Shown here: positions 5,818-8,433 of the stretch, in pieces
Position numbering within the stretch: the stretch's first letter is position 1
Layout: each line of letters starts with the position of its first letter
Source: Lachnospira sp.
Lineage (GTDB): Bacteria; Bacillota; Clostridia; Lachnospirales; Lachnospiraceae
Direction of reading: 5' to 3'
NCBI GenBank assembly: GCA_028693195.1
Contig: JAQUVV010000004.1
Location: 1-35,205 of the forward strand
DNA: 35,205 nt
Position numbers and translations under genes: made by a program
The notes under the pieces: model-generated
Seen by the model: only the letters and a program-made list of their open reading frames with translations
Database searches by the model: none
What the model was told of the DNA's origin: nothing

Positions 5818-6966
5818 TTAATCCAGCAGTGAATTTAATGTCAAATCCACATGCAGTGCCTTCTGCATATCTGCGGCCGATTTTCCTGCTTCCAGATTCT
5901 TCTTTCCGTCCCATACAGCACGAATTAGCAGATTCTTTGGTGTATGCTCCATGTCGATAAACTCTAAAATCTGTGTACGGTAACCATGTGCCTCCAGCAA
6001 TTCTGCTCTAGTCGCATCCGTTATAATTGCTGCCATTCTCTCTTTCAGGATTCCATATTTCATCACTGGTGCCATCATCTCATTCTCAATAGTCTTGTTT
6101 GCCTCATGCTGACAGCACGGTACAGACAAAATCACCTTCGCGCCCCATTTTACAGCCTTTCCCAGCGCATAATCAGTTGCTGTATCACAAGCATGAAGTG
6201 TTACCACCATGTCCACATGAGTCACATCCTCATAGGATGCGATATCTCCTATATAGAAATTCAGCTTATCATATCCATAAGCATCCTTTAATTCATTACA
6301 TTTACGGATTACATCATCCTTCAAATCCAGTCCAATCACTCGAATATCATATCCTTTCAAGACCTTCAAATAATAGTACATCGCAAATGTCAAATATGAC
6401 TTTCCACATCCAAAATCAATAATCGTCTGTTCTTGATTCTTATCTAACTGTGGAAGAATATCCTCTATGAATTCCAGAAAACGGTTAATCTGTCTGTACT
6501 TGTCGTACTTCGCATGAACAATTTTTCCGTCCTTGGTCATGACTCCCAGATCAATGAGGAATCCTACAGGAATCCCCTCTTCCAGAATATATTTCTTACT
6601 TCGATTATGGGAAAGCTCCTTCTGCTGTCTGCACTCCTGACACTTCTTGAACTTCACCGTCTTATTTCCATTCTTCCCCGCCAATACAGTTGCCGTCGCA
6701 TTGGTCATGGTAAACTGAGCCTGCTTAAAATCCTGTTCCAGATATTCTGTAATCACAGTTCTTAATTCCTGTTCCTTATAATTCTTATGGAACACTTTCG
6801 TGCCAATATATTCTGACACCTGAAACTCCATACCTTCCTTCAGAATCACTGGACGTACTTTCACCTTAGCAGGTACATTCTCATCCGTCTTATTCCTCTT
6901 CCCACTAATGGTCAGATCAATCAATTCCTCATTGAGGCATTTATCATAAAGTTCTTCTATATTCAT
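5818..6966 (-). CDS. Class I SAM-dependent methyltransferase, Methyltransf_32 type
   Basis: DFGCGKSYLTFAMYYYL (motif I), VTLHACDTATDYAL, and SVPCCQHE. Confidence 0.85.
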   Translation of the reverse strand: MNIEELYDKCLNEELIDLTISGKRNKTDENVPAKVKVRPVILKEGMEFQVSEYIGTKVFHKNYKEQELRTVITEYLEQDFKQAQFTMTNATATVLAGKNGNKTVKFKKCQECRQQKELSHNRSKKYILEEGIPVGFLIDLGVMTKDGKIVHAKYDKYRQINRFLEFIEDILPQLDKNQEQTIIDFGCGKSYLTFAMYYYLKVLKGYDIRVIGLDLKDDVIRKCNELKDAYGYDKLNFYIGDIASYEDVTHVDMVVTLHACDTATDYALGKAVKWGAKVILSVPCCQHEANKTIENEMMAPVMKYGILKERMAAIITDATRAELLEAHGYRTQILEFIDMEHTPKNLLIRAVWDGKKNLEAGKSAADMQKALHVDLTLNSLLD

Positions 6967-7036
6967 AAGGTATTCTCCTTGTCGTTTCGTTCTAAAATCA
7001 GGGGTAAATGTATATATCTTACTTTGTCTAAGGTCA

Positions 7037-7464
7037 CAGAGTATATATTACGCCAACGCAGGCACGCTTTCGCTACACCTCGCTCGTTGCGTTACATAAG
7101 CGACCATGACGAACTTCGTTCATCTAATACGGTCGCAAAGTAACGACGGCTCACTAGTACCTGCTTATGGCATAACACATACTCTGCGACATATACGAAA
7201 AGCAAGATTGCACGAAAAGCACGGCTATCGCAGTGTGGACTGGCGAATCACACAGGAAGTGTTTTGTTTTATGACTCGGGAGATATTTAGAAAGTCTTAC
7301 CTTGATGCTTTGGTGTCAGTAACAATCAGACACGATGTCTGATTGAAGTGTCACTGAGCCATGGATGGCGAATGGCACTGTTTACGTAAATAAAGAACAC
7401 ATTGCTCATCAAGGTTAGAGTTTCTTAATATCGGACGCCGGAATAAAACGGAACACTTCCTGTG
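7037..7464. other. Highly self-complementary intergenic element (candidate structured ncRNA or MITE-like insertion)
   Basis: Three blocks of complementary segments: nested helices at 7037-7186, hairpins at 7184-7253, and a ~57-bp imperfect inverted repeat (7251-7307 with 7407-7464) enclosing a perfect 10-bp hairpin. No convincing ORF. Confidence 0.75.
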
Positions 7465-7581
7465 GGATTTGCCTAAGACACATTTCACCCTAATTTATCA
7501 TAATTAGTATATAACACTGTTAACACCCCTATTTTAATCTGTTTCCCCCAAAATCACAAGCTTTTCGCGTAATTATCCTGC

Positions 7582-8433
7582 TCAATAATCCCTGTTATTA
7601 ATTGGAGTCGACAGGTGAATCAATGTCTGGTCCTTATTTTCATCATAAGACATGGTAATATTAATATTAACCTTCTCTTTCCCTATGGATATTGCCGTAT
7701 CAATGTCCTTGTCATATCCGTAGACCGTATACAAATCCTCTGTCATCTTCTCTGTTCGTACAACGCCTCCAATTTCTCTCATAATACTGTCTCTAAAGTC
7801 CTTCATGCTGCTCTCCGCCATCCTTCCGGCTGTCTTTCCAGAAAGATCTACTGTCACAATTGTGTCCAGATGATAATCCCCCACAATCTGCTTCATAAGC
7901 TTTCGATACGTATCTGTCGATGCAATGGAGTTTTTTAATTGAATATTCATACAAAGATACTGATTCTGAGCAACAATCTCTGTGTCTGCATTTTCATTGA
8001 CGGTGACCATCTTTAACAATACATTTCCATTAGGAGAGTTCTGCTCCAGCACTGTACTTCCTTCCCCATTTGATTGAATTGTATAACGATTGATTCCTAT
8101 CTTCTCCGCTATTTCTTCGAGAATAATATACTTGGCGTTCTCCGTCAGTGCCATATCTCCAAAATATCCGTTGGCTGTAATATCCGCTGTCACATCAGAA
8201 TAGACGACCTCGGAAAATGCATCAACGACATCTACCTTTTGCCTGTACCCACGCCACGTACTGATGCATAGATTCAGTGCTGCCACCGTCCACAAAGCAA
8301 GCGCTGCAAAAACAATTCCTTTTGTGCGAATTTCCCGCATCCTTTTTCTTCGTTTTATATGAGTCTTCTTTGCTTCTCGATCATCCCCATTACTTCTTCT
8401 ATATTCATCATTCTCTTCTCTCGGTCTTAACAT
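7582..8433 (-). CDS. YwmB-like protein (DUF1779/TATA-box-binding-fold family), single N-terminal TM
   Basis: TM near the N-terminus and a soluble alpha/beta region. Located immediately downstream of atpC, the usual place for ywmB in Firmicutes. Confidence 0.6.
   Translation of the reverse strand: MLRPREENDEYRRSNGDDREAKKTHIKRRKRMREIRTKGIVFAALALWTVAALNLCISTWRGYRQKVDVVDAFSEVVYSDVTADITANGYFGDMALTENAKYIILEEIAEKIGINRYTIQSNGEGSTVLEQNSPNGNVLLKMVTVNENADTEIVAQNQYLCMNIQLKNSIASTDTYRKLMKQIVGDYHLDTIVTVDLSGKTAGRMAESSMKDFRDSIMREIGGVVRTEKMTEDLYTVYGYDKDIDTAISIGKEKVNINITMSYDENKDQTLIHLSTPINNRDY

What the first reader, a model, noticed from the sequence alone, without database searches (positions are those of the whole stretch)
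7037..7253. Nested, multi-helix fold in a non-coding gap (first half of a possible large structured RNA)
Complementary segments nest consistently: cagagtat (7037-7044)/atactctg (7179-7186); gcca (7052-7055)/tggc (7168-7171); gcaggcac (7058-7065)/gtacctgc (7157-7164, one mismatch); cgttac (7090-7095)/gtaacg (7140-7145); gcgacc (7100-7105)/ggtcgc (7131-7136). They are followed by ctgcga (7184-7189)/tcgcag (7228-7233) and gtgtg (7233-7237)/cacac (7249-7253). Five properly nested helices in 150 nt is hard to get by chance, and the local composition differs from the AT-rich flanks. I do not recognise a known RNA class.
Basis: seen in the sequence. Interest (0 to 1): 0.65.

Follow-up and report, generated by a model that had tools for sequence, protein, structure and literature searches.

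The report
Nested mobile repeat with RNA-like fold
The folded stretch is one of about 32 scattered copies of a small, protein-free, jumping-gene-like repeat in this bacterium, and its inner fold is kept by matched base changes across one bacterial family although the RNA library searched here does not list it.

Summary
The five nested helices exist at the stated coordinates. They are not a single-locus RNA: they are the core and inner arms of a dispersed palindromic repeat. A covariance model of the core (7053-7170) finds 32 copies in the host genome, copies in 16 of 22 genomes of the genus (host included) and, among 391 genomes of the class, only members of one family (named hits: mostly Lachnospiraceae). 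Most paired positions carry compensatory changes; Rfam 15 has no match for the core. The presumed 'second half' is the known Rfam family TwoAYGGAY (7275-7439, 114 bits). Core and TwoAYGGAY also occur apart in this genome, so here they are two modules of one composite of about 506 bp (6993-7498). Eight related genomes have the same gene pair without the element: the site was probably empty. In sister genomes, core-bearing copies have TAGGCRWTTGCGAAAC terminal inverted repeats and 10-12 bp target-site duplications; core-less deletion derivatives have duplications too. This fits a non-autonomous, MITE-like mobile element. The mobilising enzyme, and whether the fold acts as RNA or single-stranded DNA, remain unknown; no duplication was seen for the window's own end type.

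The parts
6993..7498 (.). whole composite palindromic element; imperfect terminal inverted repeat TAAAATCAGGGGTAAATG (6993) / CATTTCACCCTAATTTA (to 7497); ends approximate
   Evidence: ends judged from arm complementarity and from sibling copies with the same end type, L002, L003, L005, L009, L012; same gene pair without the element in 8 relatives
7033..7190 (+). core with inner arms GTCACAGAGTATATATTACGCCA / TGGCATAACACATACTCTGCGAC, shared by many copies
   Evidence: inverted repeat I3; many copies match about 7015-7221
7053..7170 (+). conserved covarying core as modelled by covariance model R1
   Evidence: 103.8 bits in the window copy
7058..7065 (+). P1, 5' strand (gcaggcac), pairs with 7157-7164 (gtacctgc), one mismatch
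7066..7073 (+). tiny hairpin GC-TTTC-GC inside the most conserved stretch ACGCTYTCGCT
7082..7087 (+).
   Evidence: changes on both sides at the P2 pairs; longer in 19 of 77 relatives
7090..7095 (+). P3, 5' strand (cgttac), pairs with 7140-7145 (gtaacg)
   Evidence: all six pairs change on both sides among relatives
7100..7105 (+). P4 hairpin, 5' strand (gcgacc), pairs with 7131-7136 (ggtcgc); sequence differs freely between copies
7267..7448 (+). TwoAYGGAY module; the same stretch occurs without the core in L008, L010, L011
7275..7439 (+). Rfam RF01731 TwoAYGGAY, 114.2 bits (cut-off 43)
7242..7473 (.). 31-bp inverted repeat (7242-7272 / 7443-7473) around the TwoAYGGAY module
7531..7559 (-). 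promoter-like TTGTGA-17-TAAAAT, similar sequence in relatives; outside the element, upstream of the methyltransferase gene (start 6966)
   Evidence: a consensus match, not proof of activity

Best explanation
The region is one copy of a non-autonomous, MITE-like palindromic mobile repeat of Lachnospiraceae-type bacteria. Outer arms that differ between subfamilies surround a conserved covarying core of about 115 nt; in this copy a second palindromic module carrying TwoAYGGAY lies beside the core inside the same outer ends. The copies examined hold no transposase gene, so the element must be moved in trans by an enzyme acting on its ends. Shown: dispersal, related genomes without the element at this site, terminal inverted repeats with 10-12 bp target duplications in a sister-genome subfamily, and duplications around core-less derivatives. 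Inferred: the enzyme (one that makes staggered cuts, for the TAGGC subfamily); that the window subfamily moves in a comparable way; and the role of the core, which is kept as a folded single strand (RNA when a copy is read through, or extruded or lagging-strand DNA) and most likely limits harm to neighbouring transcripts or binds a protein factor. At this site the element would be transcribed from the minus strand as a leader of about 500 nt of the methyltransferase mRNA.
For: 46 matches to the region and 36 to the inner 114 bp in the own genome; 32 model matches there; copies between genes; eight relatives with the same gene pair and a short gap without the element; terminal repeats TAGGCRWTTGCGAAAC with perfect 10-12 bp duplications in 6 of 11 copies, two more at 92% and 83%, against at most 80% in mixed pairs; core-less forms with duplications; covariation of the core; no gene of transposase type in the loci inspected.
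Against: No target duplication found for the window's own end type or its siblings, one ambiguous case apart. No autonomous partner found. Several ends touch stop codons exactly, which an ordinary MITE model does not predict. The window genome is incomplete (324 contigs, 86% complete), so a partner may be missing from the assembly.
Confidence: 0.8

Rival explanations
1. The core is a functional RNA (trans-acting small RNA or protein-binding RNA), selected as the + strand transcript, that uses MITEs as vehicles.
For: Conserved unpaired bases between freely changing stems and strong covariation; 18 U-G at one P3 pair with UA and CG as the other forms; core shared by several end types.
Against: With model-free stem alignment G-T does not exceed A-C overall (20 to 14 and 9 to 16); orientation to genes is mixed; no transcript data.
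Confidence: 0.3
2. The element is a single-stranded-DNA hairpin repeat moved by a Y1/HUH transposase (REP/RAYT or IS200/IS605 manner), and the fold is read as DNA.
For: Almost pure Watson-Crick covariation with few wobble pairs; the window end type has no detectable duplication; hairpins within hairpins; one IS605-type Y1 gene in the genome.
Against: The best-resolved subfamily has 10-12 bp duplications, which single-strand transposition does not make; the ends of the one Y1/TnpB element found are unrelated; core-less forms have duplications too.
Confidence: 0.12
3. A cis-acting regulator or terminator kept at gene ends for the host's benefit.
For: Clusters just behind stop codons; none between divergent genes in the own genome; some relatives have T-runs after the arm.
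Against: Both orientations occur; no terminator-like site in the window copy; the window copy lies before a gene start; homologous gene pairs in relatives lack it.
Confidence: 0.1
4. Chance complementarity without any function.
For: Fold z-score of only -2.36.
Against: Covariation over 77 distinct sequences, 0 of 500 shuffles reach it, and the score collapses when partners are slid.
Confidence: 0.01

Closest known systems
bcr1-bcr3 MITE-like repeats of the Bacillus cereus group (PMC3446304)
   Same: High-copy intergenic repeats without genes, MITE-like, often within untranslated regions; some bcr families have conserved secondary structure.
   Different: No sequence comparison with bcr repeats was made here. 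Different host group; here one core is shared by several sets of ends and is missing from some copies that carry duplications.
TwoAYGGAY RNA (Rfam RF01731; listed in PMC2864571 as probably an RNA, not cis-regulatory)
   Same: Present at 7275-7439; palindromic, several copies in the own genome.
   Different: It is the neighbour, not the core: the core does not match it or any other Rfam family. In this genome TwoAYGGAY is itself inside repeats, one kind with 23-bp ends GGATTCAGGTGTCAAAAGGTGCT.
Bacterial MITEs in general, such as Correia, RUP, YPAL/RU-2 and CIR repeats (PMC2229807)
   Same: Terminal inverted repeats, no gene, target duplications in one subfamily, folded interior.
   Different: Larger composite (about 506 bp); no partner transposon identified.
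REP / BIME palindromes with RAYT transposases (PMC2817692, PMC3116915)
   Same: Extragenic palindromes in many copies, with some adjacent inverted pairs in relatives.
   Different: Much larger; duplications in one subfamily; no RAYT association seen (one IS605-type Y1 gene with unrelated ends).

Membership tests
Bacterial MITE (non-autonomous DNA transposon) | short dispersed copies at non-homologous sites in one genome | tested here: met
Bacterial MITE (non-autonomous DNA transposon) | terminal inverted repeats | tested here: met
   clear for the TAGGCRWTTGCGAAAC subfamily; imperfect for the window end type
Bacterial MITE (non-autonomous DNA transposon) | target-site duplication | tested here: inconclusive
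   met in the G013/G014 subfamily, 10-12 bp; not seen for the window end type
Bacterial MITE (non-autonomous DNA transposon) | sites with and without the element | tested here: met
   eight genomes of the genus with the same gene pair and no element; no same-species strains available
Bacterial MITE (non-autonomous DNA transposon) | autonomous transposon with the same ends | tested here: not met
   none found; a common gap for MITEs, and the assembly is incomplete, so I claim 'MITE-like' rather than a MITE of a named transposon family
TwoAYGGAY (RF01731) | score above the gathering cut-off | tested here: met
   7275-7439, 114.2 bits; for 7275-7439 only
TwoAYGGAY (RF01731) | match of the reported stretch 7037-7253 | tested here: not met
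   no Rfam match to the core up to E = 5 except one far below its cut-off at 7015-7048
REP/RAYT or IS200/IS605 derived repeat | insertion without target duplication, ends related to a Y1 transposase element | tested here: not met
   duplications in one subfamily; the IS605-type element found has unrelated ends
Structured RNA gene or cis-regulator | covariation supporting the fold | tested here: met
   (the second alignment is fitted to the model)
Structured RNA gene or cis-regulator | strand-specific signature (G-U over A-C) or fixed orientation | tested here: inconclusive
Structured RNA gene or cis-regulator | transcript | not testable with these tools
   no expression data

The most novel reading that the evidence does not exclude
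The core is a structured RNA (or single-stranded DNA) module, conserved across genera of one bacterial family, that lives inside several MITE families with different ends. It is not needed for their movement, so it does another job, such as sparing the host transcript or acting in trans. TwoAYGGAY would be a second such module.
Probability: 0.3. Interest if true: 0.8.

Novelty: new variant of a known kind. Interest (0 to 1): 0.55.

Why it matters
It adds an unlisted, strongly covarying structured family, spread through one family of bacteria, that can be placed on mobile DNA. It shows that a listed RNA family (TwoAYGGAY, typed Cis-reg in Rfam) can be a passenger of dispersed palindromic repeats. 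A conserved fold shared by several sets of ends, yet absent from some copies that still carry target duplications, gives a direct way to ask what the structured interiors of bacterial MITEs do.

Tried and rejected
A single RNA of about 430 nt: the modules occur apart. Inverted pairs of copies in relatives as the two ends of a transposon: between and beside them are ordinary neighbours (for example genes that read by eye as an aspartyl-tRNA synthetase C-terminus and gatC/gatA), no transposase. Outer arms as site-specific terminator stems with the core inserted in the loop: rejected because arms are shared between copies within a genome. Core-less copies as pre-insertion sites: their junctions look like deletions between short direct repeats (TTGCA, GCTTGC; read by eye). 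The IS605-type element on contig C54 as mobiliser: unrelated ends. An autonomous relative of the 23-bp TwoAYGGAY-repeat ends: only solitary ends or short forms. Plasmids and phages: no match; one IMG/VR contig, not followed up. Strand test by wobble pairs: inconclusive; a G-U excess in the model-fitted alignment largely disappeared when stems were re-aligned without the model.

Full report
Observation. The complementary segments are present as listed. The region lies in a 615-bp gap between a methyltransferase gene (start at 6966, minus strand) and a DUF1779 gene (stop at 7582, minus strand). Folding of 7020-7270 gives -70.7 kcal/mol, z = -2.36.

What lies beside it. Rfam places TwoAYGGAY (RF01731) at 7275-7439 with 114.2 bits against a cut-off of 43. 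Apart from one chance microRNA match far below its cut-off at 7015-7048, nothing in Rfam matches the reported stretch up to E = 5. TwoAYGGAY sits inside a 31-bp inverted repeat, 7242-7272/7443-7473.

It is a repeat. A search of the own genome with 6990-7520 gives 46 matches: a few composite copies, many with only the first part and some with only TwoAYGGAY. The inner 114 bp alone has 36 matches. The core GCAGGCACGCTTTCGCTACACCTCGCTCGTTGCGTTAC...GTAACGACGGCTCACTAGTACCTGC is surrounded by at least three sets of arms: the window type (ends about TAAATCAGGGTTTATC), a type with ends ATTCTAATYTAAACATG and the same inner arm, and a type with arms AGATGTACACTAATAATATAGTTT and AATTGCGAAAC ends. The hairpin inside the core differs between copies by matched changes (GCGACC/GGTCGC, GCTGAT/ATCAGC, TGCACC/GGTGCA, CATACC/GGTATG), and some copies carry additional small hairpins.

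Relatives and covariation. Divergent homologues in sister species were aligned by MAFFT with own copies and a covariance model was built with a structure that I wrote from that alignment. On it 92.7% of cells pair and 12 of 30 pairs change on both sides. The model finds the element in 16 of 22 genomes of the genus, host included. In a sample of 391 genomes of the class it finds the host and 10 of 15 other members of the same family and nothing outside that family at E <= 1e-5, under the stricter filters used for large searches. Ninety-four matches in fetched loci of other genomes, 77 distinct, give 29 of 30 pairs with changes on both sides and a covariation score of 0.63 against 0.18 for shuffles; this second alignment is fitted to the model and leans to it. 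Conserved unpaired bases (ACGCTYTCGCT, the bulge in P2, TAA and CTAAG beside P3) stand between stems that change freely. In 19 of 77 sequences P2 is longer, with at least 5 of 6 pairs outward from its inner part Watson-Crick, against 2% in mixed pairs.

Mobility. Eight genomes of the genus keep the DUF1779-methyltransferase pair with roughly 70-130 bp between the genes and no element. Most of these gaps hold a promoter-like sequence similar to the window's TTGTGA-17-TAAAAT at 7559-7531, which lies upstream of the element. The site was therefore probably empty, and the element now lies in the leader of the methyltransferase transcript, read from the minus strand (inference). In G013 and G014, copies of a related subfamily end in TAGGCRWTTGCGAAAC. 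Of 11 scored copies, six have perfect 10-12 bp direct repeats outside the ends and two more reach 92% and 83%; the maximum among mixed pairs was 80%. Core-less forms of 66-139 bp with the same ends have duplications or near-duplications too, and one core-less junction is present at two sites (L368, L374). Movement therefore does not seem to need the core. For the window's own end type and its siblings no duplication was seen, one ambiguous case apart.

Which molecule folds? If the + strand RNA were the selected form, G-T should exceed A-C mismatches. The model-fitted alignment showed this in P2-P4, but re-alignment of the stems with symmetric scoring gave 20 to 14 in P2+P3 (18 of the 20 at a single P3 pair) and 9 to 16 in P4. 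Outer arms gave 153 G-T to 275 A-C, much of it from related own-genome copies. Orientation relative to genes is mixed: in the own genome 11 parallel, 4 antiparallel, 6 between convergent genes and none between divergent genes; in other genomes 24, 26, 14 and 9 (genes called by a simple ORF rule). I call the strand undecided.

Placement. In the own genome, distances from the core to a facing stop codon cluster at 43-72 nt, and the ends of several copies touch the stop codon (TAA, TAG or TGA) of the upstream gene exactly. Distances to gene starts are more spread. This may reflect selection for harmless sites, target choice, or both.

Mobiliser. No transposase was recognised between inverted pairs of copies or next to solitary ends. 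DDE_Tnp_1 was not found in G000, G013 or G012. The only Y1 gene found in the own genome belongs to an IS605-like pair with unrelated ends.

Verdict. The finding is real as a fold, wrong as half of one large RNA, and best read as a composite MITE-like repeat with a conserved structured core that Rfam does not list. Close analogues are the bcr repeats of Bacillus cereus (PMC3446304) and other bacterial MITEs (PMC2229807). My literature searches found no description of this element, but the library holds open-access papers only and no search by sequence is possible there.

Noticed in passing
L014, L015, L018, L019, L020, L021, L023, L027 (own genome): Copies with ATTCTAAT-type ends begin directly at a stop codon (TAA, TAG or TGA) of the upstream gene, and L013 and L021 end against a TTA that reads as the stop codon of a gene on the other strand; no target duplication is visible. 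The cause is unexplained.
   Followed up: partly
L008, L010, L011, L324 (own genome): TwoAYGGAY in a separate repeat of about 300 bp with 23-bp inverted ends GGATTCAGGTGTCAAAAGGTGCT; a form of about 107 bp lacks TwoAYGGAY and several solitary ends exist.
   Followed up: partly
L015, L017, L019, L020, L024 (own genome), right of the element: A further palindromic module (GGGGGAGAATCAGCAAAATGCTGATTCTCCCCC within longer arms) follows directly on the element's right end in several copies.
   Followed up: no
L002 right end; L017 and L024 left end: Another palindromic unit (CGATAGAACGTAGTTCTATC...CACGGCATTCGCCGTATA) replaces one normal end of the element.
   Followed up: no
L143, L144, L147, L148, L149: In five species of the genus an inverted pair of copies lies between the same two genes, which read by eye as an aspartyl-tRNA synthetase and gatC; this could be old shared insertions.
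   Followed up: no
L384: One IMG/VR viral contig carries the core pattern near its end; it may be a prophage edge.
   Followed up: no
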